From: Actinomycetes bacterium
Lineage (GTDB): Bacteria; Actinomycetota; Thermoleophilia; BMS3ABIN01
Direction of reading: 5' to 3'
Assembly: GCA_021787475.1 (NCBI GenBank)
Contig: JAJYLW010000001.1
Span: 62,001-126,000 of the forward strand
Length of the DNA stretch: 64,000 nucleotides
Shown: in pieces, positions 13,234 through 64,000 of the stretch
Numbering within the stretch: the stretch's first letter is position 1
Layout: each line of letters starts with the position of its first letter
Made by a program: the position numbers and the translations under genes
The notes under the pieces: generated by a model
What the model saw: the letters and a program-made list of their open reading frames with translations, nothing else
What the model was told of the DNA's origin: nothing
The model's database searches: none

Positions 13234-13971
13234 ATCAGCAATAAAATTGAAAAAATCAGCCTACTCCTGGTTGAAAATCAGGAATATTACCTTAAAAGTC
13301 TGCTCGAAAGTCTTCAGACGAGGCCGACCATTGAAGTCGCAGGGTCGGCCACCAACTTTGAAGATGCGAGAGAGCTTATCGAAAAAAACACCTTTGACAT
13401 CCTCTTGACTGATCTGGCTATCCCCCGAAAAAAGTTCGTCTCTTCGGCAACATCCTGGTTTCCGGATACCGATAAGCAGCCGAAAACCGAAATCGGCTTG
13501 AAACTGATAAGCTTCTGCGCTCAAACAAGGCCCGAGGCTAAGATAGTGGTATTAACCGTATCCAATGGATGCGGATATTTTTTAAGAGCTCTAAGAGCCG
13601 GCGCTTATGATTACCTGGTCAAAGATTATATTGACAGTAACTTGGTTCAATGCCTGAGCATCGTTCAAAACGGCGGCCGTCTGCCTTTGCCGCCGCAGCT
13701 AAAAAAGATGCGAGCGCAGTTTGAAAGTGACAGCGCATTTTTGCCTTTCAATCTCACTTCCAAAGAACTTGAAGTCCTTGATCTTTACTCACGAGGCAAA
13801 CGGGACAAAGAGATTGCCAGCCACTTTAATAATTCCCCCAGGACGATACGCCGCATTTTTGAAGAACACTTAAGAGAAAAAATGGGGGTTCGCGAGCGCC
13901 AGGAGATGGTGGTCTTGGCTGTAAAAGAAGGGCTAATTGATCCGCATACTTCCAAGCCAAATGAATTTTGA
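13234..13971 (+). CDS. NarL/LuxR-type response regulator, possible non-canonical start
   Basis: The receiver domain begins KISLLLVENQEYY, has the phospho-acceptor Asp in DILLTDLAIP and the conserved Lys in YDYLVKD. A LuxR helix-turn-helix follows (LTSKELEVLDLYSRGKRDKE, then SPRTIRRIFEEHL). No ATG, GTG or TTG precedes the receiver in frame after the upstream stops at 13186 and 13195. The first standard start (TTG 13405) would remove the first 50 residues including the acidic pocket. A strong GGGGAGG (13221-13227) sits 6 bases before an in-frame ATC (13234), so initiation at ATC or at ATT 13246 is proposed. It overlaps the kinase gene by 11 bp. Confidence 0.75.
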   Translation: MSNKIEKISLLLVENQEYYLKSLLESLQTRPTIEVAGSATNFEDARELIEKNTFDILLTDLAIPRKKFVSSATSWFPDTDKQPKTEIGLKLISFCAQTRPEAKIVVLTVSNGCGYFLRALRAGAYDYLVKDYIDSNLVQCLSIVQNGGRLPLPPQLKKMRAQFESDSAFLPFNLTSKELEVLDLYSRGKRDKEIASHFNNSPRTIRRIFEEHLREKMGVRERQEMVVLAVKEGLIDPHTSKPNEF

Positions 13972-16237
13972 CACCGAAGCAGCCGCTGTAGATAAAAAGA
14001 GCTTGGATGGAACCGGGCTTGTCCTGTATATGCGTCCATTTCTTAAAAGAAATTTTGCCAAAAAAACTCATTCTTTAGAAAACCCGGCTCTCATCGGTGA
14101 AGACGGATCGTGCCGCCGGTACCTTGTGCTTCAAAAGTGGGCCGTCTATTGGCGGTTCGTAATAATCCTTCAAATACCGGTCATGTCGTTCTTTTGCCCG
14201 GAAAGATTAGGATCTGTGGGCTGGGCTCTTGTTGTTTTCGCAGCCGCCGCCTCATACACCGCCATTTACGCATATTTGGCCATGGTGTCAAAGCGTTCGG
14301 GAAACAAATATTTTCATCTGATTGATCTTCTCGTTTGCGCCTCTTTAATGATTCTGGCCCGCGAACCAAAGCTAATCTATATCTCTTCCATGTATGCTTA
14401 TTCAACCCTTATTGCTTTTCCGAAACGCCGCTTTTCCGAGGCATTCGCTACCACATTTTTCTTAAGCTTCGCGTATCTGGGAGCCCAGTGGCTATGGGTG
14501 CAGACACCCCTCCAGCTTCTCGGCTCTCCAAATGAACTGGGCAGTTTCATAATCTTCTATTTTTTCGGCCTCGGCTCTGTCGCTTTTGCCGGGATTCTTG
14601 AGAGGGTCTCAAATCTTGAACTTGCCGGTATTTTAAATAGGGAGCGGATGCTCTTTCGTGCCTGGCTTCATGATGACCTTGGCAGCATCGTTTGCGGCCT
14701 ATGCTTGTGGAGCGAGGGTATTGCCGAGAAAAGCGCAGATGAGATAAAGAAAGCATTAAATCAGCTCTCAGAAGGCACCAGACTGGCAAGCGGCACCATG
14801 AAACGCCTGTTTTCTGATCTTGAATCGTCGGAGAAAGGAAGACTTACTGATAATCTTTCGGAACTGGCGGAAAGCTTTAAGCCAACCGGAGTATCCATCC
14901 TCATTGTTTCAAATGAAAAAAACATCAATCTAGCTCCCGGACTTCAAAGGGAAATCTTTTGCCTGATCCGTGAAGCTGTAAGAAATGCGGCCGCTCATTC
15001 TCTTGCAAAAGAGATAACCATCAAAATCAGCTATCACCGAAAACATTTGATGATCGAAGTCAACGATGAGGGAAGGGGCTTTGGCCCAGATGAGCTTCAC
15101 CAAAAACAAACTGAGGGAAGCCAAGGCATCAAGCTGCTTCAAGAGCGCGCCTCGCGGATTAGCGGCAAAGCAGCGATAGAAAGCATCCCCGGGAAAGGAA
15201 CAAGCGTTAAATTCTCGTTTTCAAAGGTTATGAAAGGAAGTCAGGGAAAACTGCAAAACCGCCTGAAGTTACGAGGAGGCGGAATCTTCTCGCTCCTAAT
15301 CCTTATTCAAACTCTCATGCTGGGCCTGGTTTTGATCCAGATGATGCTCCTGCCGCCGTATCAGAGGTTCTCTGTCGCTGCTCTCATCATCATGGGGGTG
15401 CTCTTCCTGGATTGCATAGCTTGGGTAATATTCCGACTGCGCCTTTACAATGCTTTCCAGAATTTCCCCGTTCTTTTAATTATCAAACAGTCATTATTCG
15501 CGGTTCTCTTTGTCATTGCCCTACAGGCCGGCCTGCCTATTTATTTCAGCTTGTATATCGGAGTAAGTTTTTTAATAAGCAGTCTATTCTTGGGCTTTTT
15601 CGGAAATTCGCTGGCTGGCGGAATATTTGTTCTTGGAACTTTTTTTGCTTACAACTTCGGGCCAAGCACTTTCAATGGCAAAGTTGTCGAAGATTTTATT
15701 ACCTTCAGCACTTCGCTTTGGCTAACAGCGGCTTCGGCAGGGCTTGGAGCCAAATTCCTTTCAAGTCTCGAAGCTCTGAAAGAAAAAACTACCAGAAGCG
15801 CTTCAAGCGAAGAAAAGAATCGCTTGGCCTCGGAAGCCCTTAAGCAACTTGAGGGTCTCCTTGCGAAGTTGACTTCAGAGATACATTCTCTCCAAAAAAG
15901 CATACCAGACAAATCTGCCTTAGATCAAATCAGTGAGAGCAATTTAAATTTAATGAAACAGCTGCGTCTCCAATTGAAGCTGTGGCAATATAATACTGGT
16001 AGTTTTGGAGTATCATCGCCAGTTATAGATAATGGCCTAGTTTTTGTTGAAGGAAATAACCGGATAATTGCAGTTCCATCTGCTGCAGCTTGTTCCAGTA
16101 CTTGTTATGAGGGGCAGGGGAAAGAAACTTGGATACTTGTTATGAGGGGCAGGGGAAAGAAACTTGGATATTTAAAACAGACAGTGATTTTCTTACAAAC
16201 CCAATTCGAACACCCATCATCTTTGTCAATAATATAG
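13961..16237 (+). CDS. Membrane histidine kinase (HisKA_3/NarX type) with second membrane module; 3' end frameshifted
   Basis: About 758 residues as read. The N-terminal part has around six membrane helices, then an H-box (FRAWLHDDLGS) and an ATPase domain with N box EAVRNAAAHS, G1 VNDEGRGFGPDE and G2 GSQGIKLLQER. Unusually, a second block of about six helices and a coiled coil (EALKQLEGLLAKLTSEIHSL) follows, then the first blade of a beta-propeller (SPVIDNGLVFVEGNNRIIAV). A 35-bp tandem duplication at 16100-16169 shifts the frame and ends the protein at 16237 with about 35 non-homologous residues. ATG 13961 overlaps the regulator stop (ATGAATTTTGA). It is most likely the partner of that regulator; its signal is unknown. 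It could represent two fused genes. Confidence 0.75.
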   Translation: MNFDTEAAAVDKKSLDGTGLVLYMRPFLKRNFAKKTHSLENPALIGEDGSCRRYLVLQKWAVYWRFVIILQIPVMSFFCPERLGSVGWALVVFAAAASYTAIYAYLAMVSKRSGNKYFHLIDLLVCASLMILAREPKLIYISSMYAYSTLIAFPKRRFSEAFATTFFLSFAYLGAQWLWVQTPLQLLGSPNELGSFIIFYFFGLGSVAFAGILERVSNLELAGILNRERMLFRAWLHDDLGSIVCGLCLWSEGIAEKSADEIKKALNQLSEGTRLASGTMKRLFSDLESSEKGRLTDNLSELAESFKPTGVSILIVSNEKNINLAPGLQREIFCLIREAVRNAAAHSLAKEITIKISYHRKHLMIEVNDEGRGFGPDELHQKQTEGSQGIKLLQERASRISGKAAIESIPGKGTSVKFSFSKVMKGSQGKLQNRLKLRGGGIFSLLILIQTLMLGLVLIQMMLLPPYQRFSVAALIIMGVLFLDCIAWVIFRLRLYNAFQNFPVLLIIKQSLFAVLFVIALQAGLPIYFSLYIGVSFLISSLFLGFFGNSLAGGIFVLGTFFAYNFGPSTFNGKVVEDFITFSTSLWLTAASAGLGAKFLSSLEALKEKTTRSASSEEKNRLASEALKQLEGLLAKLTSEIHSLQKSIPDKSALDQISESNLNLMKQLRLQLKLWQYNTGSFGVSSPVIDNGLVFVEGNNRIIAVPSAAACSSTCYEGQGKETWILVMRGRGKKLGYLKQTVIFLQTQFEHPSSLSII
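16100..16169 (+). repeat. 35-bp perfect tandem duplication inside a coding region
   Basis: Bases 16100-16134 are repeated exactly at 16135-16169. The unit is not a multiple of three, so the kinase/propeller frame changes. Removing one copy restores a continuous beta-propeller reading (CYEGQGKETWIFKTDSDF). Confidence 0.92.
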
Positions 16238-16658
16238 TTATCTTTGGCGGAGGTGATAATCTATTTGCTCTGGATGCTAATTCTGGTAAAAAAATATGGG
16301 TTTACAAATGTAACGGAAGTGTGAAAGATCCGGTCCTTGGGAACGGAAAGATTATTTTTAATAGTGATGATGGGTACTCCATTCTGTGGACGCGACCACT
16401 GGACAAGAAAACTGGGAAATAAAAATAAATTCCACTACAGTGCCGGCATTTAGTAATAATGTTATTTATATGGGTGTAACAACAAATGATGTCTTCAAAA
16501 CTGCTTATTATCTGGTCGCCATTGATAGTGCAAACGGAAAGGAAATGTGGCGATTTGGAATGAATAAAGAAATTGAATCAACGCCTTATGTTGAAAATAA
16601 TACGGCCTACTTTGGTGATGATGACAATTATTTCTACGCAGTATCTATGCCAGACTAA
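16129..16658 (+). pseudogene. Detached PQQ-like beta-propeller segment of the kinase gene
   Basis: Two frames carry typical PQQ/YncE-like blades: PIIFVNNIVIFGGGDNLFAL followed by DANSGKKIWVYKCNG, then after a second one-base frame change near 16390 VDATTGQENWEIK, YYLVAIDSANGKEMWRFG and TPYVENNTAYFGDDDN. The repeated A-x-D-x-x-x-G-K-x-x-W pattern is diagnostic. Together with the blade at the end of the preceding ORF this was probably the sensing domain of one long protein. With two frame changes the segment is best treated as broken, unless they are assembly errors. Confidence 0.7.
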
Positions 16659-19835: not shown

Positions 19836-20072
19836 GTGGCAGAATTACCCGGGGACGGCCGCAGGGCAAAAGACTTTATGGAATTTGCCACCCGAATTCT
19901 TCGACCATTCCCCGCCGCGATGGAGAATTACGCCGTCATGGGCCGATCTGTCTTTAAGCCGCTGATGAAGCTCGGACTTTATGAAAAGGCCTTCATGGCG
20001 GACCGGACCCCGGCCGCAACGACCCATGTCCCTGTGGGCCGGGGAAAGAAGTATAAGAAGTGTTGTGGGTGA
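19836..20072 (+). pseudogene. Small protein ending in a degenerate SEC-C motif, probably a remnant
   Basis: The 78-codon frame ends THVPVGRGKKYKKCCG, like the SEC-C zinc-binding tail CPCGSGKKYKKCCG, but its first Cys pair is lost. The preceding residues form a helix-rich segment (FATRILRPFPAAMENYAVMG) with no family recognised. SEC-C tails occur on SecA and many small proteins. The loss of half the ligands suggests decay. The rest of 19239-20234 contains only the other remnants listed. Confidence 0.4.
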
Positions 20073-20234
20073 TAGCTCACTGGGTCGCGGGGCTCAGTTT
20101 TTCTGTCCGGGGTGGATGGTAGGGTACACAGAAGCAACTCCGCAGTCAATAAGCAAACGGCGTGATTGCCGGCGGGCAGCGGTGTTGAGTCTGAAAAATT
20201 TCATCAAAAAGTTCCAATCAAAGTGGAGGTAAGT

Positions 20235-21560
20235 ATGGCTGAAAGCTTGACACTGAAAACTTTAAACCATTCAGTCGCAGGACAGGCTGCAGCCTTCCGC
20301 TGTCGCCGCCGGCTCCAGCCGGCTGGCGGCGAAGGTGACAAAGTATTTCCGCCGACGTTTGCGGGTGCTGTGTACGCAATTGAACAGCGGCGGCTACCAG
20401 GGTCAGACACACCGGTCAGTTGTGTATTACTTGATAGCGTGCAAAGTCAAGCGAACCGTATGGAGCTTGCCCTTCAAGAGGCAGTTAATGCCGGAAAAAT
20501 CAAGCTGCCAATAGTAGAAGTGGATTTTTCGGAATACGAGCCAACTGGCGACGTGGGCGCGGATGAGAAAGCCGACCGCCTTATAGAAGCAGTTGGAAAG
20601 ATCACTAGTTTGCAAGTGCCCCATCGCATAGCCGATGCCATCCTCCGGGACAGCGAGCTGGATGGAGTTCGGTTCCGTCAATCGGAAATCGGAAAAGCGT
20701 TAAATGCCATTAGCCTCGCGAATGCCACCCCGCTTTTCGAACTTTGCCCTACAGCGTTACTTTTTGGCATGTGGGATTCCACCGGGCCAAAAGGTGGACT
20801 AGGACCGAAATTCGAACGCGCAGTGGTGTCTGAGATCTCTGGCATTGGTGCTGAATTTGGGATCAAGACGCAGAGCCGTGTTGATCCACTGATCACCAAG
20901 ACGACCGGAATCCCCCTATATCAGAAGATAGGCGGTGGGTGGACTCTCAATGAGAAAGAAGCGTTTAGGAAAGGTGGGAAAGCAGTCAAACTTGGAAAAG
21001 AGGGAAAGACGTCCGAAGCTAACCTCGGCAATGTCACACCAGCGTTCCACAAGTACGGAAAAGGGGCGGAAGGAATTGACCCACTCACAAACGAGCAGGC
21101 TCGCGAAGGGCGAATTGCTCCTGGTGGCGTCACGATTGAGTACGCTGAGCAGGTTACGACGCTTTCCCTGATCTGTCTCCGACGTCTGCACTTTCCGCTC
21201 AATGGCAAAACCGGCGACGCAACCGATAAAGTTGCGCGCACGGTGCTGGCCGCTCTTGGTCTGTGCAGTGCGACACTTGCATTCGAGGCAGGCGTAGGTC
21301 TACGTTCACGTAGTCTTCTATGGCCAGATGGTTCGATGATCTGGGAATTGCTTGAACGTCCAGGCACACCAGCGCGAGAGTTTGAGCTGACCGGCGAGCA
21401 GGCTATCGCGTTGCTTAACGAGACAATCGCCACCGGCAAAAAGAGTGGACTCACTTGGCGCGAAGACCCCGTTACACTCAAGCCCTCAGCGGAACTGCTC
21501 AAGCTGGTGCGCCTCAGTCAACTGCAGGCTACCAAGGAAGGAACGGGAGAGGAAGCGTAA
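20235..21560 (+). CDS. cas7: Type I-G CRISPR Cas7 (Csb1, GSU0053 family)
   Basis: 441 residues from ATG 20235, chosen because GGAGG lies 5 bases upstream. The family pattern of Csb1 is followed: VSCVLLDSVQSQANRMELAL near residue 65, VPHRIADAILRDS, TALLFGMWDSTGPKGGLGPK and the Gly-rich TIEYAEQVTTLSLICLRRL. Cas7 forms the backbone of the Cascade complex along the crRNA spacer. It is the first gene of the cas operon; the stop is one base before the start of csb2. Lysine-rich inserts near residues 235-265 (EAFRKGGKAVKLGKEGKTSE) are in the region where the family loops contact RNA. Confidence 0.92.
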   Translation: MAESLTLKTLNHSVAGQAAAFRCRRRLQPAGGEGDKVFPPTFAGAVYAIEQRRLPGSDTPVSCVLLDSVQSQANRMELALQEAVNAGKIKLPIVEVDFSEYEPTGDVGADEKADRLIEAVGKITSLQVPHRIADAILRDSELDGVRFRQSEIGKALNAISLANATPLFELCPTALLFGMWDSTGPKGGLGPKFERAVVSEISGIGAEFGIKTQSRVDPLITKTTGIPLYQKIGGGWTLNEKEAFRKGGKAVKLGKEGKTSEANLGNVTPAFHKYGKGAEGIDPLTNEQAREGRIAPGGVTIEYAEQVTTLSLICLRRLHFPLNGKTGDATDKVARTVLAALGLCSATLAFEAGVGLRSRSLLWPDGSMIWELLERPGTPAREFELTGEQAIALLNETIATGKKSGLTWREDPVTLKPSAELLKLVRLSQLQATKEGTGEEA

Positions 21561-21561
21561 G

Positions 21562-22812
21562 ATGCTGGCCTTCGGCATCCGCTACCTTAACGGCTTCGTT
21601 GCCGCCGCAGAGCCGGACAATCTGGAGCGCGCAGAGTGGCCACCACATCCGGCCCGCGTTTTCATGGCCCTAGCGGCGGCGCATTTTCAGACCGGCGGAG
21701 AGCTGGATGAACGCGGTGCCTTGTTATGGCTAGAAGGCACAAAGCGCGGTGGAGAGATATCTGCGCCCATGATTGCCGCACCAGAAGGAGCGCGGCGAGA
21801 TATCGTTCAGCAATTTGTACCAGTAAACGACAAAGCGATTTGGAAAAAAGACCCTGCGAAGCCGAAGAAGAAGCCAGCTCCACCCTTGCAGGCTGCTACC
21901 GGAATAATGCGGGAGCGTCAACCACGTGTGTTTCCACGTGTTTGGCTTGATAATGAAACAGTCTATCTCATCTGGCCGAATCTCAATCTACCAGACCTGC
22001 ATCGCGATACTTTAGTACGATTGTGTTCCAAGGTAACACGCATCGGCCACTCCAGTTCGCTGGTGCAAATGTGGATCGCCGAAAATGAAGAGATAAATGA
22101 GCCTAATTGGGTTCCCGACGAAGAGCGCGCACTAACCCATCTGCGTATTCCAGGGCCCGGCACCCTTGACTATCTCGAACAGCTATACAACACAAAGGCT
22201 ATAGAAGACTACGGAGAGCTATTGGTTGCGAAAAAGCAAATAAACGATTTAAAGCTTAAAAAGGCCGCAAAAAAACGGCTTCGTGATGAATACGGTAATC
22301 AACCACCACCTCAACAACGACCCCGGCTTTCCCTTTATCAAGGATATGCTCGACCCGCTCAAGAAGCCGCAACCACGCGTGTGGCGAGTACCGTCTTCGG
22401 TCCCCATTTCCTGGTGTTGCAGCTGCGTGCCAAGCAGGGGCAATATCAGCAGCTCGATCTCACCTCGACGCTGGCCATCGTCGGCCGCTGGCGGGAGGCA
22501 ATCCTGAGTAACAGCAACAGCCTCGCCGAACCGGTCCGTCGAATGCTGAGCGGCCATGATGCCAACGGCGGCCCGGCGGCCGATCCGCACATGGCCTACC
22601 TGCCGCTCGCCTTCGTCGGATACGAACATGCTGACGGCCATCAGCTAGGTATGGGGCTGGTGCTACCCGCCGAACTCTCAGTCGATGATCGACGCCAAGC
22701 TCTGCGTGCAATTGCCTTGGTCAGTGAACTCAGACTTGGTCCCTTGGGGGTTTGGACGCCCAAACCAATGACCGCCTCGCAGCCCCCCTGGAACCTGCGA
22801 GCAGAAACCTAG
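21562..22812 (+). CDS. csb2: Type I-G Cas5-Cas6 fusion (Csb2, GSU0054 family), N-terminal part ending at an in-frame amber codon
   Basis: The 416 residues before TAG 22810-22812 start MLAFGIRYLNGFVAAAEPDN and include WPPHPARVFMALAAAH, both typical of Csb2. The N-terminal Cas5 portion caps the 5' handle of the crRNA and the C-terminal Cas6 portion processes pre-crRNA. The frame stays open on both sides of the TAG, and the Csb2 sequence continues immediately after it for 121 residues. Homologues appear to have Trp at this place (E-T-W-T), so a single TGG to TAG change is inferred. Unless suppressed or reinitiated, the product lacks the end of the Cas6 domain. Confidence 0.85.
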   Translation: MLAFGIRYLNGFVAAAEPDNLERAEWPPHPARVFMALAAAHFQTGGELDERGALLWLEGTKRGGEISAPMIAAPEGARRDIVQQFVPVNDKAIWKKDPAKPKKKPAPPLQAATGIMRERQPRVFPRVWLDNETVYLIWPNLNLPDLHRDTLVRLCSKVTRIGHSSSLVQMWIAENEEINEPNWVPDEERALTHLRIPGPGTLDYLEQLYNTKAIEDYGELLVAKKQINDLKLKKAAKKRLRDEYGNQPPPQQRPRLSLYQGYARPAQEAATTRVASTVFGPHFLVLQLRAKQGQYQQLDLTSTLAIVGRWREAILSNSNSLAEPVRRMLSGHDANGGPAADPHMAYLPLAFVGYEHADGHQLGMGLVLPAELSVDDRRQALRAIALVSELRLGPLGVWTPKPMTASQPPWNLRAET

Positions 22813-22848
22813 ACAGCATATCCAAACGGGGCGACTCAATGGTCAACG

Positions 22849-23178
22849 GTGACACCGATTGTTTTCGATCGTCATCCTAAATCAAAAAACCAATCTCAGA
22901 ACCACCAGGAAACTGTCGCGATGGTTGCCGAGAGCTGTATCCGGATAGGCTTGCCTACGCCACGCGAAGTCATCATCACCCAGGTTTCCGCACATCTTGG
23001 CGTCCCACCATCATTTGTCTTCCCGCGCCTCAAACGTAAGGACGGCAGCGAGCGCCGCCATACTCATGCAATACTTGTATTCGATGAGCCGGTGTGCGGG
23101 CCTGTCCTGATCGGAGCGGGGAGGTTTCGCGGATATGGTGCTTTGCGACCGATGAACCAGGGGCAAAGAGCAGATTGA
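22849..23178 (+). CDS. csb2: C-terminal Cas6 part of Csb2, separated by the amber codon
   Basis: Same frame as the preceding gene. It contains TPIVFDRHPKSK, IGLPTPREVIITQVSAHLGV and the closing Gly-rich loop GPVLIGAGRFRGYG that marks RAMP/Cas6 folds. It could be made by reinitiation at GTG 22849 (36 bp after the stop) or by readthrough. Otherwise it is the dead tail of a pseudogene. It ends TGA 23176-23178, two bases before the cas3 start, so operon spacing is intact. Codon content and frame show little further decay, suggesting the stop is recent or tolerated. Confidence 0.8.
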   Translation: MTPIVFDRHPKSKNQSQNHQETVAMVAESCIRIGLPTPREVIITQVSAHLGVPPSFVFPRLKRKDGSERRHTHAILVFDEPVCGPVLIGAGRFRGYGALRPMNQGQRAD

Positions 23179-23180
23179 TT

Positions 23181-26100
23181 ATGGGTACCCTTCCCTCTTT
23201 CACGGAATACTTCCAAGCTTTATGGTCTCATGAGCCATTTCCCTGGCAACGCTTGCTGGCCGAGCGGCTGACGAAAGGTGAGTGGCCAAGAGCGCTTGAT
23301 TTGCCAACTGCGGCAGGAAAGACAGCGTGCATTGATATTGCAATTTACGCGCTGGCATCACAGGCACAAAAACCTGTTTGGAAACGCACGGCTCCACGAC
23401 GCATCTGGTTCGTGGTAGACCGGCGCATAGTCGTAGACGAGGCATTCGAACGAGCGCGAGCGATTGCGGAGAAATTGCACAAAGCTACTGATGGGCCGCT
23501 GAAATTAGTCTCCGACCAATTGCGCAAAATCAGCGACACTGAGCGGCCGCTTGCTCTGGGAAGACTGCGCGGCGGCGCGTTACGGGACGATGGCTGGGCA
23601 CGATTGCCTTCCCAGCCTGCGGTGATTACTTCCACGGTGGATCAACTGGGATCACGGCTGCTATTTCGTGGCTATGGACCCAGCGCATTGACCTCACCGA
23701 TTTTTGCAGGTCTGGCTGCTCACGACAGCCTAATTCTGCTGGATGAAGCGCATTTGTCTGTGCCTTTCATGCAGACACTGCACGCAGTTGAATGCTACCG
23801 TGGCAAAGACTGGGCAGAACAGCCGATACAGACGCCTTTTGCCTTTTCCATCATGTCCGCGACACCACCACCAGATATTCCTAAATCTGCCGTGTTCCCT
23901 GGTGCCGAAAAGGAAGCGGCACTTGACCATGCTGAACTTGATCGTCGTATCAATGCTTCCAAACCTGCTGAGCTGGTTTTGGTGAAAAACCGAAAGCTAC
24001 CTGAAAAAGATTCGTTTGTTGAATCGGCAGTGGAGCGGGCTACAGCGTTTGTGAAACGGGAAGAAAGGCAGCGAGTCGCTGTTATTGTTAACCGCGTTCG
24101 AACAGCCGAGCTGATAGCTCAAGCGTTAGGCCAACAATGTGCTGACGAATTTGACGTTGTATTGCTAACGGGTCGTCTCCGCCCCTTTGAGCGTGACCAA
24201 CTCATTGCGCGGTGGAAACCGGTGCTCAAAGCCAACCGACCTGAGCAGCCCGAGAAACCCATAGTCCTGATCTCCACCCAGTGCATCGAGGTCGGCGCCG
24301 ATTTCAGTTTTGATGCGCTAGTGACGGAAGCTGCAAGTCTGGACGCCCTGCGTCAGCGTTTCGGACGACTCAACCGGCTGGGCAGAATTGAATCTGCTTC
24401 ATCGGCAATCCTAATCCGCGATGCAGATGCCAAAACGGGTGCGGATGATTTTATTTACGGCACTGCGATGGCGGAGTGTTGGGGCTTGCTACAAAGACTT
24501 GCTGAGCCACATCCATCAGGTAAACACGCGTGCAAAGTGCTTGATTTCGGCATTGCCGCACTCGATTCTCATTTGCAGTCGATTGAGGATCTAATGCCAT
24601 ATATTTCTCCGACACTGGATGCTCCTTTGTTGTTGCCTTCGCACCTAGATCTTCTTTGCCAAACGTCGCCAAAACCTCAAGTAGAACCTGATATCGAGCT
24701 TTATCTTCATGGCGCCGGTCGCGGGACGCCTGAAGTCAGGATTGCATGGCGCGGAGACCTCGATGAGAAAGATACAGAAAGTTGGCTGGAGACGATAGCG
24801 CTATGCCCGCCAAATAGCGCGGAAACAGTTTCCGTTCCGCTTTACCAACTCCGAAAGTGGCTCGCAAATATAACAGATGACGACGACACGGGTGATGTTG
24901 AAGGCGAATATCATACGGACCCGCGGTCAAAGGAACAGATTCGACCGGTGCTGCGATGGCGTGGACGGGAGAGCTCCGTGGATGGCTCTCTTGTATGCAA
25001 AACCGCTTCTCAAATCCTCCCCAACGAATTAGTTATCCTTCCAGCAGTCTATGGGATAAATGGTCTTGCACAATCAGCGCCTGAGCATGTTTTAGGAGAT
25101 CTGAAAATCGACATTTGGGAGCCAAGTCATGCCGGTACCGGCAAACCTGTCGCACTCCGGTTACATCGTACGGTGTTGAAACCCTGGCTTGATTGTCCGC
25201 CTTTGAAAGCATTGATAGAAGTCGCCGAGAGTCCGGCCTGGGAGCGCGAGAACGTGCAAGACGCTATTGATAAAGTGCTCGCCTACCGCCGGGAGGCCGA
25301 AGAAGAAGCATCCGTTCCGCCGGATTGGTGGATCGCGCTCCTGAAGCAGGTTCGCAACGGATGTTTCGAGCAGCATCCAGCTGGTGGCCTAGTATTGAAA
25401 GCCTATAAAACGAAGGCCCAGGAGGAAGTCGAACAGGAAATATTTGCCGACGATGACGACCTGTTATCAGCTGCCGGAAAAGAAATCAGCCACGTCTTAC
25501 ATAGCGCTTCGGTACAACGCGCCGCTCAAAAGCTTCTGAGCCGCTGCCTGCCAGAAGAATTTCATGAACCACTTAAAACCGCAGCTTATTGGCACGACAT
25601 CGGAAAGTTGGATGAACGATTCCAGATCATGCTTCGCGAAGGTGATGAGCTGGCTGTTTTGACAGGTGAACCTCTTGCAAAATCCGTGGCTGTGCCAAGC
25701 TCGCCCCGACGGCGTCGCGCCATTCGAACAGCAAGTAAATTGCCAAAAATTTTCCGACATGAAATGCTGTCATTGCAGCTTACTGAACACTTATTCCCGA
25801 ATGTTGACAATGATACGCCTAACGATCTGATGTTGCACGCGATTACCAGCCATCACGGATACGGAAGACCTTTTGCGCCTATAAGTCTCGATGAAGAACC
25901 GTTGCCTATTCAAGGAGTACACGGTGGGGTTGCTATCGAAGTTGAAAATCAGGAACGTGCATCTTGGCCTGCGGCACATACATTTAAATCTGGTATTTCC
26001 GAACGGTTCTGGCGTTTAAACCGACGTTATGGCTGGTGGGGATTGGCTTACTTGGAAGCAATCCTGCGATTGAGTGACTGGTATGGCAGTCAGTGGGTTT

Positions 26101-27311
26101 TTGACAAGGCGCCAGAGGAGGAAGAAGCTGGATCGAAATCATCACCTTCAAGAGTCATTCGCGATAATGGCAATTCTTTAGTTCTTGAAGGCATTGATGG
26201 TTCGATTCCTCTTGGTTTTCTTGCTGCTGTCGGGACATTGGTTGTGCTTCATGAATCAGGTCATCATGAATCGCGTCTTCATTGGCATCGCGGCGTGACA
26301 TGGAAACCTGTTCTGACAAACTTACTAACATTTAATCAAGAAGAATTAGCAAAAATTATTGCTGATGCTTTACATGGTTCGTCTGTAACAAGTCAAGCGC
26401 AAGCAAATCTTAAAAGCGCACGAATCCAGATGGACAAGAAAAAAACTGAAATTACAAAACAAATTAAATTGATAAAAAGCCGAAAACTTCGCGGCCAGGA
26501 ACGTGAAGAAGCAATGGAAGAAACAGTTAAACCTCTTGAAAGTGATTACAAGCTACTACGTACAAAGTGGCTCAGTGCCTTACGCGACGCTGTCCCTCGA
26601 CCAGAGCTTGCACTCGGGAAACACATTGATTGTAATCGCGAAGAGTATCGTGAGCATTGCAGGATGTTCCTAAAGGACGCGTGTTGGAACAGCAGGGAAC
26701 CGCTCGACCTAATGGTAGCGTTTGCAAGTGATGTAATTCTGCATGAGAACAATCTTAAGAGAAAGCAGGGTATGGTTTTGCCAATGCAATTTTGCTTTAT
26801 TAAGGGAGCCAGTCAACAGTTTTTCCTTGATACTGTGCGCCAACTCATGGAACAAGTAAGACTGGAAAAGATTGCAGATGCCCTTTTTAAAATGTGGACG
26901 TACGAAGACGAAAAGCTATCTTTGAGATGGGATCCTATTGAAGCCCGACGTTACGCTTTAATGGATATAAACCCTTCGAACATTTGCGCTCGTACAGTTT
27001 GGATGGCAAATTTGCTTGCCTATCGCGCACTTGTTTTATTTCCCTCTGCACCGACGCTCTGTGGTCTATCTAGCGTCGGATGGCGAATCGACAGAGGTAC
27101 CAAAAAAACTGATTTTAACTGGGCCTTATGGAAACAGCCAATTGGCCCTGACGAGGTTCGATCGATTCAAGTATTATCAGAACTCTATCAAAAAGAGCCG
27201 GATCGTAATTCATTAAGAGCCATGGGAATTGAAGCAGTTTTCGGGCACAAAAAGTTATGCTTGGAAAGTCGAGCACTAACTTCAGCCCTGCAGTTGAAGT
27301 ATAATTATTGA
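23181..27311 (+). CDS. cas3: Type I-G Cas3 helicase-nuclease with C-terminal HD and fused Cas8-like extension
   Basis: 1376 residues from ATG 23181. The SF2 helicase part comes first: DLPTAAGKTACID near residue 32, LILLDEAHL near 185, STQCIEVGADFSFD and QRFGRLNRLG near 390. The HD nuclease is C-terminal to it (TAAYWHDIGKLDERF near 804, ITSHHGYGRPF near 890), the order known for type I-G. A further 370 residues include IPLGFLAAVGTLVVL near 1010, a Lys-rich coiled coil near 1080-1130, and LSLRWDPIEARRYALMDINP near 1249. This tail resembles the Cas8-like large-subunit or Cas3-extension proteins of type I-G. No separate csx17 gene exists here, so target recognition and degradation may lie on one chain. 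Codons become more AT-rich in the tail. Confidence 0.93.
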   Translation: MGTLPSFTEYFQALWSHEPFPWQRLLAERLTKGEWPRALDLPTAAGKTACIDIAIYALASQAQKPVWKRTAPRRIWFVVDRRIVVDEAFERARAIAEKLHKATDGPLKLVSDQLRKISDTERPLALGRLRGGALRDDGWARLPSQPAVITSTVDQLGSRLLFRGYGPSALTSPIFAGLAAHDSLILLDEAHLSVPFMQTLHAVECYRGKDWAEQPIQTPFAFSIMSATPPPDIPKSAVFPGAEKEAALDHAELDRRINASKPAELVLVKNRKLPEKDSFVESAVERATAFVKREERQRVAVIVNRVRTAELIAQALGQQCADEFDVVLLTGRLRPFERDQLIARWKPVLKANRPEQPEKPIVLISTQCIEVGADFSFDALVTEAASLDALRQRFGRLNRLGRIESASSAILIRDADAKTGADDFIYGTAMAECWGLLQRLAEPHPSGKHACKVLDFGIAALDSHLQSIEDLMPYISPTLDAPLLLPSHLDLLCQTSPKPQVEPDIELYLHGAGRGTPEVRIAWRGDLDEKDTESWLETIALCPPNSAETVSVPLYQLRKWLANITDDDDTGDVEGEYHTDPRSKEQIRPVLRWRGRESSVDGSLVCKTASQILPNELVILPAVYGINGLAQSAPEHVLGDLKIDIWEPSHAGTGKPVALRLHRTVLKPWLDCPPLKALIEVAESPAWERENVQDAIDKVLAYRREAEEEASVPPDWWIALLKQVRNGCFEQHPAGGLVLKAYKTKAQEEVEQEIFADDDDLLSAAGKEISHVLHSASVQRAAQKLLSRCLPEEFHEPLKTAAYWHDIGKLDERFQIMLREGDELAVLTGEPLAKSVAVPSSPRRRRAIRTASKLPKIFRHEMLSLQLTEHLFPNVDNDTPNDLMLHAITSHHGYGRPFAPISLDEEPLPIQGVHGGVAIEVENQERASWPAAHTFKSGISERFWRLNRRYGWWGLAYLEAILRLSDWYGSQWVFDKAPEEEEAGSKSSPSRVIRDNGNSLVLEGIDGSIPLGFLAAVGTLVVLHESGHHESRLHWHRGVTWKPVLTNLLTFNQEELAKIIADALHGSSVTSQAQANLKSARIQMDKKKTEITKQIKLIKSRKLRGQEREEAMEETVKPLESDYKLLRTKWLSALRDAVPRPELALGKHIDCNREEYREHCRMFLKDACWNSREPLDLMVAFASDVILHENNLKRKQGMVLPMQFCFIKGASQQFFLDTVRQLMEQVRLEKIADALFKMWTYEDEKLSLRWDPIEARRYALMDINPSNICARTVWMANLLAYRALVLFPSAPTLCGLSSVGWRIDRGTKKTDFNWALWKQPIGPDEVRSIQVLSELYQKEPDRNSLRAMGIEAVFGHKKLCLESRALTSALQLKYNY

Positions 27312-27450
27312 TTTTCAAGTTCGGTCCAGTTGTTATTCGGAGCCACGCGCTCCCCGTTCCTTGACAACTAAATAAACTCCTCTCCTCAAGTTAATTCAGC
27401 TTGCGCCGATTGTCTTTCGGTCAATTCTTTATTCGACCGGAGATGGTTAC

Positions 27451-29434
<1,984 letters not shown>

Positions 29435-29643: not shown

Positions 29644-31340
29644 ATTTCCATGGCAGAAATGCCATGGCCTCATTGAAGCTCCCCGTTGGCCGCTGCGGCC
29701 TCTGCGTCGTGGAGGTGATTTCCATGGCAGAAATGCCATGGCCTCATTGAAGCTCGATTCCTCGATTCCTCGATTCCTCGGGGATTTCCATGGCAGAAAT
29801 GCCATGGCCTCATTGAAGCTGGAGCATTATGATGATCTGGTAGGGGGTGAGGAGATTTCCATGGCAGAAATGCCATGGCCTCATTGAAGCTACCACTTTG
29901 CCGGGGGAGGCAATCCCGTCGCCGAATTTCCATGGCAGAAATGCCATGGCCTCATTGAAGCGGCTCTTATGGGGTTCATTACCGCCCTCATCGCCGTATT
30001 TCCATGGCAGAAATGCCATGGCCTCATTGAAGCTCTCCCCAATAATTCTATCTTATATTTTTTATTTTGATTTCCATGGCAGAAATGCCATGGCCTCATT
30101 GAAGCGGCGACACTCCTGCAAATTGAGGCTGATTCTTGGGGAGATTTCCATGGCAGAAATGCCATGGCCTCATTGAAGCGCAGGCAAGGCGCGATCTGTA
30201 TACATCTCTGTCCGTTATTTCCATGGCAGAAATGCCATGGCCTCATTGAAGCCAGGATGAACACGCGCGGCACAAACAGCACGCGCAGCATTTCCATGGC
30301 AGAAATGCCATGGCCTCATTGAAGCTCTTACTATCAGATCGTCGATGCCCTTAACATGCAGAATTTCCATGGCAGAAATGCCATGGCCTCATTGAAGCAG
30401 TCAAGACGCCCTCATCGAGGTCGTCCTGTATTCAATTTCCATGGCAGAAATGCCATGGCCTCATTGAAGCTTTTTCACCACGGCGTCATGGACGTGTGCA
30501 GAGAGGATTTCCATGGCAGAAATGCCATGGCCTCATTGAAGCATCAGAAGCCCAACCATCGGAACCCTTACCAGAGAAATTTCCATGGCAGAAATGCCAT
30601 GGCCTCATTGAAGCGGCCGGGACAATCAGGGTAATCGGCAAAGGTGGTAAAATTTCCATGGCAGAAATGCCATGGCCTCATTGAAGCGTATTACCGTTCG
30701 CGGGGGCCATAATTAGCATATACCATTTCCATGGCAGAAATGCCATGGCCTCATTGAAGCTGGTGATACATAACCTTGTTGGCCGCTTGGGCCGCGCATT
30801 TCCATGGCAGAAATGCCATGGCCTCATTGAAGCTGCGGACCCGCTGGAAAGCATAACATTCTCTCCAGATTTCCATGGCAGAAATGCCATGGCCTCATTG
30901 AAGCAAGAAAATTGGCGATAGTTATAGTGGTTTGGTCACGATTTCCATGGCAGAAATGCCATGGCCTCATTGAAGCTTCTCCAGTCTGGGCGGCGGCGTG
31001 GAGCGCTGGCGCTATTTCCATGGCAGAAATGCCATGGCCTCATTGAAGCCGGCGTTAATCCCGGGATTGATAAATTTTTAAATTGTATTTCCATGGCAGA
31101 AATGCCATGGCCTCATTGAAGCCCTACTAGGTCATCATAATTTTCCAAGACACCCTTCAAAATTTCCATGGCAGAAATGCCATGGCCTCATTGAAGCAAG
31201 AAAATTGGCGATAGTTATAGTGGTTTGGTCACGATTTCCATGACAGAAATGCCATGGCCTCATTGAAGCTTATCAACTCCGGCTATGTCGGCCAACCGTT
31301 TCGCATTTCCATGGCAGAAATGCCATGGCCTCATTGAAGC
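29644..31340 (+). CRISPR. CRISPR array, 24 repeats of 36 bp and 23 spacers
   Basis: Repeats start ATTTCC and end CTCATTGAAGC. The first is 29644-29679, the last 31305-31340. All look identical except repeat 23 (31234-31269), which has G to A at position 10. Spacers are 35-39 bp, except spacer 2 (29754-29783), which is 30 bp and built of a TCGATTCC unit. Spacer 18 (30905-30940) and spacer 22 (31198-31233) are identical, so 22 spacers are distinct. The repeat contains a perfect 8-bp hairpin CCATGGCA-GAAA-TGCCATGG with a GNRA-type loop, which would be the Cas6 processing structure. The array follows the cas genes and ends 130 bp before the toxin-antitoxin pair. Confidence 0.98.
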
Positions 31341-63916: not shown

Positions 63917-64000
63917 CTATGACATCCGGCGGCCGCTCATCTCTACATAGCGGCGGATCTCAGCGGCGTAGGCGGCAAATTCGCCCACGGGCAACGACTG
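63917..64000 (-). CDS. C-terminal end of probable DAHP synthase (partial)
   Basis: Only 27 codons are visible before the TAG at 63919-63917: QSLPVGEFAAYAAEIRRYVE, then a short basic end. This resembles the closing helix of AroF-type 3-deoxy-7-phosphoheptulonate synthases (QSLTPEEF.xLM.xlr.ia...GR). Position directly before tyrA and aroA supports it. The identification rests on a short segment. Confidence 0.5.
   Translation of the reverse strand, partial: QSLPVGEFAAYAAEIRRYVEMSGRRMS

What the first reader, a model, noticed from the sequence alone, without database searches (positions are those of the whole stretch)
21562..23178. In-frame amber codon splits the Cas5-Cas6 protein Csb2 of a type I-G CRISPR system
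The reading frame is continuous from 21562 to 23178 except for TAG at 22810-22812, and Csb2 sequence resumes directly after it, up to the Gly-rich Cas6 loop. Flanking residues (E-T-stop-T-A) suggest a Trp codon TGG changed to TAG. A GTG 36 bp downstream (22849) could restart translation and give a split Cas6. Either crRNA processing is lost, or the organism tolerates the break by readthrough or by two polypeptides. TAG is a normal stop elsewhere here (coaE, the S53 protease, the gene at 63917), which argues against recoding.
Basis: partly seen in the sequence, partly recalled or inferred. Interest (0 to 1): 0.8.

Follow-up and report, generated by a model that had tools for sequence, protein, structure and literature searches.

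The report
CRISPR guide-processing gene broken by stop
The gene for the enzyme that cuts CRISPR transcripts into single guides carries one stop codon in this assembly, where 78 of 79 relatives encode tryptophan, so the system is most likely recently disabled (or the base is misread): ordinary decay of one gene, not a new mechanism.

Summary
The csb2 frame (21562-23178) is open except for TAG at 22810-22812, and the 121 codons after it are genuine Csb2: family TIGR02165 at 1e-23, and 58-72% identical to the ten nearest relatives. In 79 aligned relatives that position is Trp in 78 and Tyr in one. None of them stops there. The stop falls between the two RRM halves of the Cas6 domain, so the product would lack His502, the counterpart of the catalytic His503 shown in Thioalkalivibrio Csb2, and the Gly-rich loop.

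Recoding is unlikely. The genome has release factor 1, 46 tRNA-like genes of which none reads UAG, and other genes that end in TAG. No stimulating structure is predicted after the stop. The GTG restart has no ribosome site and would drop a beta-strand. No second csb2 or Pfam Cas6 was found in the genome.

The rest of the operon and 24 near-perfect repeats are intact, and every invariant residue after the stop is kept. That fits a recent loss, or a wrong base, which only reads can decide. The effector module was swapped horizontally onto the genus's own cas4-cas1, cas2 and array. Low interest.

The parts
20235..21560 (+). csb1 (Cas7g), intact
   Evidence: PF09617 9.4e-55, TIGR02570
21562..23178 (+). 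csb2 (Cas5-Cas6 fusion), interrupted by one TAG
22810..22812 (+). In-frame TAG in place of a conserved Trp codon (residue 417)
   Evidence: Trp in 78 and Tyr in 1 of 79 aligned relatives
22849..23178 (+). Frame that a GTG restart would give (109 aa); judged unlikely to be used
   Evidence: no Shine-Dalgarno-like sequence before it
23065..23067 (+). Codon of His502, likely the catalytic histidine, after the stop
   Evidence: invariant in 79 relatives; His503 of Thioalkalivibrio Csb2 is catalytic (PMC9638904)
23181..27311 (+). cas3 (helicase and HD) fused to the Cas3-extension / Cas8g-like domain
   Evidence: TIGR02621 3.6e-207, NF049934 6.8e-53; PADLOC Cas8g 1.3e-60
27451..29142 (+). cas4-cas1 fusion, intact, resident type of the genus
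   Evidence: NF049935 1.5e-240; 87-88% identical in G013 and G014
29144..29434 (+). cas2
   Evidence: PF09827, PADLOC Cas2g
29644..31340 (+). CRISPR array: 24 repeats of 36 bases (23 perfect), 23 spacers, one spacer present twice

Best explanation
A horizontally acquired type I-G effector module (csb1, csb2, cas3) sits in front of the resident cas4-cas1, cas2 and array. Its csb2 has recently taken a nonsense mutation at a conserved Trp codon in the Cas6 domain. Translation stops after 416 residues: the Cas5 domain and the first RRM half of Cas6 are made; the second RRM half, with the catalytic His502 and the Gly-rich loop, is not. Pre-crRNA should then not be cut or held at its 3' hairpin, so no Cascade is expected and interference is off, although the spacer-acquisition genes and the array remain. 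Shown: the stop, the Trp in relatives, the intact rest, no UAG-reading tRNA found, no other csb2 or Pfam Cas6 found. Inferred: that the base is real, that the mutation is recent, and the loss of processing.
For: Trp in 78 of 79 aligned relatives and none split there; only stop inside Csb2 among 24 genomes with Csb2 in a phylum sample; 46 tRNA-like genes without a CUA anticodon; release factor 1 present; other genes end in TAG; no second csb2 or PF10040 Cas6; catalytic His lies after the stop and the C-terminal domain does the cutting in Thioalkalivibrio (PMC9638904); all invariant residues after the stop kept, which fits a young mutation.
Against: An undecayed tail, whole neighbouring cas genes and a near-perfect array are equally what a working gene with a wrong base in the assembly would show. 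No reads, no second assembly of the species and no RNA data were available.
Confidence: 0.6

Rival explanations
1. Assembly or consensus error, or a minority allele of a mixed population: the real gene has a sense codon there and Csb2 is whole and working.
For: A single base change explains the break; tail, neighbouring cas genes and array show no decay; the genome is a draft of 36 contigs.
Against: No direct evidence of an error at this site; nonsense mutations in single cas genes are ordinary.
Confidence: 0.28
2. The stop is read through often enough by near-cognate tRNAs to give some full-length Csb2, so that the system works at a low level.
For: The tail is as conserved as in working relatives, with all invariant residues kept.
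Against: No UAG-reading tRNA; release factor 1 present; the RNA after the stop folds less well than shuffles (z +1.57); no relative has a stop there.
Confidence: 0.08
3. Two polypeptides: Csb2 1-416 and a peptide restarted at GTG 22849 together form a split Cas6.
For: The break lies between the two RRM halves of the model and an in-frame GTG follows at 36 bases.
Against: No ribosome-binding sequence before the GTG; the restart would drop strand 424-429; none of 79 relatives is split there.
Confidence: 0.03

Closest known systems
Type I-G (formerly I-U) CRISPR-Cas of Thioalkalivibrio sulfidiphilus (PMC9638904)
   Same: csb1, csb2, cas3, cas4-cas1; 36-base repeat with a hairpin and an 8-base 3' handle; Csb2 with a C-terminal Cas6 domain and a catalytic His near its end
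   Different: Here csb2 is interrupted by TAG, and the large subunit is a Cas3-extension / Cas8g-like domain fused to Cas3 instead of a separate Cas8g
Type I-G loci with csb1-csb2-cas3-Cas3-extension in many phyla, e.g. L158 (Acidobacteria RI_231), L099 (Myxococcota SKYG55)
   Same: Effector genes 51-60% identical in the same order; L158 has the same Cas3 fusion
   Different: Their csb2 is whole; their Cas4-Cas1, where held, is only about 45% identical
Type I-G loci of the same genus (G013, G014)
   Same: Identical repeat and 87-88% identical Cas4-Cas1
   Different: Different effector genes: separate cas3 and csx17-like genes, Csb2 only 21-24% identical and whole
Type I-G locus on the Methylomagnum ishizawai plasmid pRS11DPr1 (L075)
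   Same: A csb2 whose annotated product no longer ends in the normal Cas6 tail
   Different: Several broken cas genes there; a single stop in an otherwise whole operon here

Membership tests
Type I-G CRISPR-Cas | Csb1 (Cas7g) and Csb2 (Cas5-Cas6) proteins | tested here: met
   TIGR02570 5.6e-16 and PF09617 9.4e-55; TIGR02165 in two consecutive pieces
Type I-G CRISPR-Cas | Cas3g and fused Cas4g-Cas1g, Cas2 | tested here: met
   TIGR02621 3.6e-207, NF049935 1.5e-240, Cas2g
Type I-G CRISPR-Cas | Cas8g large subunit | tested here: inconclusive
   PADLOC Cas8g 1.3e-60 and NCBIfam Cas3-extension 6.8e-53 on the end of Cas3; no separate Csx17-type gene in the operon
Type I-G CRISPR-Cas | Repeat with hairpin and 8-base handle | tested here: met
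   8-pair hairpin followed by 12 bases ending in ATTGAAGC; the same layout in other type I-G loci
Working Csb2 (Cas5-Cas6) | Continuous frame through the Cas6 domain | tested here: not met
   TAG at 22810-22812
Working Csb2 (Cas5-Cas6) | Catalytic His and Gly-rich loop present in the frame | tested here: met
   His502, Gly513, Gly518, Gly520, Gly524, Gly526 kept, but after the stop
Natural split Csb2 with separate Cas6 | Relatives that end at this position with a Cas6 gene following | tested here: not met
   0 of 79 aligned relatives; 0 of 23 other genomes with Csb2 in the phylum sample have an internal stop
Amber recoding (suppressor tRNA or reassigned TAG) | tRNA with anticodon CUA, or loss of release factor 1 | tested here: not met
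   46 tRNA-like genes, none with CUA; release factor 1 at 491 bits; draft genome, so a missed gene is possible
Working Csb2 (Cas5-Cas6) | Cuts pre-crRNA | not testable with these tools
   Needs RNA or protein data

The most novel reading that the evidence does not exclude
A type I-G system that runs with a stop codon in its Cas6 domain, by readthrough or by a two-piece Cas6, so that the supply of guides is held low by translation.
Probability: 0.06. Interest if true: 0.6.

Novelty: new member of a known kind. Interest (0 to 1): 0.2.

Why it matters
If real, the locus is a snapshot of early CRISPR loss: one base stops guide production while the spacer-acquisition genes and the array are still whole. 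It also warns that annotation by family hits would call this a complete type I-G system. If the base is wrong, the locus is an ordinary working system. In either case the mosaic of foreign effector genes on a resident array is the more lasting observation.

Tried and rejected
First relatives scan with one protein found nothing; repeated with an alignment. First family alignment took the wrong strand for some loci; redone. The plain alignment put the stop three columns off the Trp because the first set of relatives lacks a 3-residue stretch; relatives of 44-56% identity have that stretch and settle the register. Natural split: rejected. Suppressor tRNA: rejected. Other CRISPR systems supplying Cas6: three further Cas1 genes exist in the genome; two sit near a family B DNA polymerase (casposon-like) and the third lies at a contig end beside housekeeping genes, none with visible cas genes. 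Codon-usage score of the tail was uninformative, since the cas genes score low throughout; four large 'extensions' in that table have the lengths and positions of neighbouring genes in the same frame. Three spacers gave no exact match in viral contigs. Solved-structure search by sequence gave nothing; by fold, the model of moderate confidence (mean pLDDT 68) matched Cas6 structures. Paper search for similar broken cas6 cases gave nothing to the point.

Full report
Observation. The window is G000:C33:62001-126000 of a 1.84 Mb draft genome (36 contigs, 98.7% complete). The csb2 frame runs from ATG 21562 to TGA 23178 with a single TAG at 22810-22812. The part before and the part after match consecutive parts of the same models: TIGR02165 1-345 and 375-492, PADLOC Cas56g 1-323 and 325-429. 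The search of whole genomes reports one match with '1 TAG' inside.

What stood there. The first relatives, about 30-39% identical, all have Trp at or next to this place. A second scan of species genomes found 80 relatives in many phyla, the closest 56% identical. In 79 of them codon 417 aligns with Trp in 78 and Tyr in one; the eightieth (L117) was left out because its match runs past a stop six residues before the match ends. The nearest relatives share the flanks closely, e.g. LRPET-W-TAHPEGATHWSTVTP against LRAET-stop-TAYPNGATQWSTVTP. So TAG replaces a Trp codon, one base change away. In the phylum sample 24 of 397 genomes carry Csb2 and only this one has a stop inside.

State of the tail. 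The ten nearest relatives are 58-72% identical after the stop and 42-54% before it, and the tail positions found invariant in all 79 (Trp427, Pro432, His502, Gly513, Gly518, Gly520, Arg521, Gly524, Gly526) are all kept. The tail has not decayed. The mutation is therefore recent, or not real, or translation continues past it.

Where it cuts. A predicted model of the read-through protein (mean pLDDT 68) has the Cas5 part first and a Cas6-like part after about residue 260; by fold it matches Cas6 structures such as 3i4h and 3pkm. By its order of strands and helices the stop falls between the first (about 279-402) and second (about 424-530) RRM halves of Cas6. In Thioalkalivibrio Csb2 the C-terminal domain alone cuts pre-crRNA, H503A abolishes cutting, and the N-terminal domain alone binds none of the RNAs (PMC9638904). 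His502 here, near the C-terminus as there, is invariant and lies after the stop. The 416-residue product is thus expected not to process guides (inference).

Could it be tolerated? The genome encodes release factor 1 (491 bits). Of 46 tRNA-like genes, 44 have sense anticodons by ARAGORN and two weak ones show no CUA anticodon by eye. Among long open frames of the window six end in TAG: csb2, the broken gene at 13937, and four that have no long continuation. The 60-80 nt around and after the stop fold less well than shuffles (z = +1.57). The GTG at 22849 has no Shine-Dalgarno-like sequence before it and begins after the strand 424-429. No PF10040 Cas6 and no second csb2 were found. Three further Cas1 genes are not accompanied by other cas genes; two lie near a family B DNA polymerase. 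Cas6e, Cas6f and other special families were not searched one by one.

The rest of the locus. csb1, cas3 with a fused Cas3-extension (Cas8g-like), cas4-cas1 and cas2 are open frames with strong family matches. The array has 24 repeats, 23 of them perfect, and one spacer twice. The repeat folds into an 8-pair hairpin followed by 12 nt, which fits the published cut 4 nt after the stem and an 8-nt handle, here ATTGAAGC.

Origin. In the same genus G013 and G014 have the same repeat and 87-88% identical Cas4-Cas1, and DNA similarity with them begins at 27336-27349, just after cas3. Before that point the effector genes show no DNA similarity: their Csb2 are 21-24% identical to this one, whereas Csb1, Csb2 and Cas3 of an Acidobacteria genome (L158) and a Myxococcota genome (L099) are 51-60% identical. 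A remnant of the SEC-C gene found upstream of the G013 operon remains at about 20011-20121 here. So a foreign effector module appears to have replaced the resident one between about 20.1 and 27.3 kb while adaptation genes and repeats stayed. Whether the foreign Csb2 reads the resident repeat well is unknown; type I-G repeats in the fetched loci share the layout and mostly the end ATTGAAGC but vary in the stem.

Judgement. Most likely a recent nonsense mutation that ends guide processing (0.6); a wrong base or minority allele is the main rival (0.28); readthrough (0.08) and a split enzyme (0.03) are not excluded but have no positive support. Reads would decide between the first two at once. Loss of single cas genes is ordinary (general knowledge); interest is low.

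Noticed in passing
window 20121-27336; L051, L052: The effector genes look foreign (nearest relatives in Acidobacteria and Myxococcota) while cas4-cas1, cas2 and the repeat are those of the genus: a module swap with sharp edges, in which two unrelated Csb2 types (21-24% identical) serve the same repeat.
   Followed up: partly
window 23181-27311; L106, L146, L158, L160, L170, L176: Cas3 is fused to the Cas3-extension / Cas8g-like protein in one frame of 1376 aa; most relatives have two genes, at least six other loci have the same fusion.
   Followed up: yes
L183 2037-10573 (G000:C24); L184 9180-16233 (G000:C13): Two related clusters elsewhere in the genome pair a Cas1 with an N-terminal zinc-finger-like stretch and a family B DNA polymerase of about 1010 aa, with shared small genes: casposon-like. 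Ends and target-site duplications were not resolved; a third solo Cas1 lies in L185 310-1893.
   Followed up: partly
L049 101-174 minus (G000:C24:40395-40468): A tRNA-like gene with an unusual anticodon arm (no anticodon called by ARAGORN) lies inside one casposon-like cluster.
   Followed up: partly
window 13937-16658: A histidine kinase-like gene with a PQQ-repeat-like end is broken: an exact 35-base tandem duplication at 16099-16168 shifts the frame, and a second frame break follows near 16380.
   Followed up: no
window about 19881-20121: Decayed remnant of a SEC-C motif gene that is whole upstream of the G013 CRISPR operon.
   Followed up: partly
window 30905-30940 and 31198-31233: The same spacer occurs twice in the array, 293 bases apart.
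   Followed up: no
L094 (G012:C3:142-177): A genome of the same genus without a csb2 or Cas1 match keeps one copy of the repeat near a contig end, with a changed 3' end: a possible trace of a lost locus or of a cut contig.
   Followed up: no
L075 7777-15025 (Methylomagnum ishizawai plasmid): A type I-G locus with shortened cas7, a csb2 with an altered tail and cas3 in pieces: a clearly decayed relative.
   Followed up: partly
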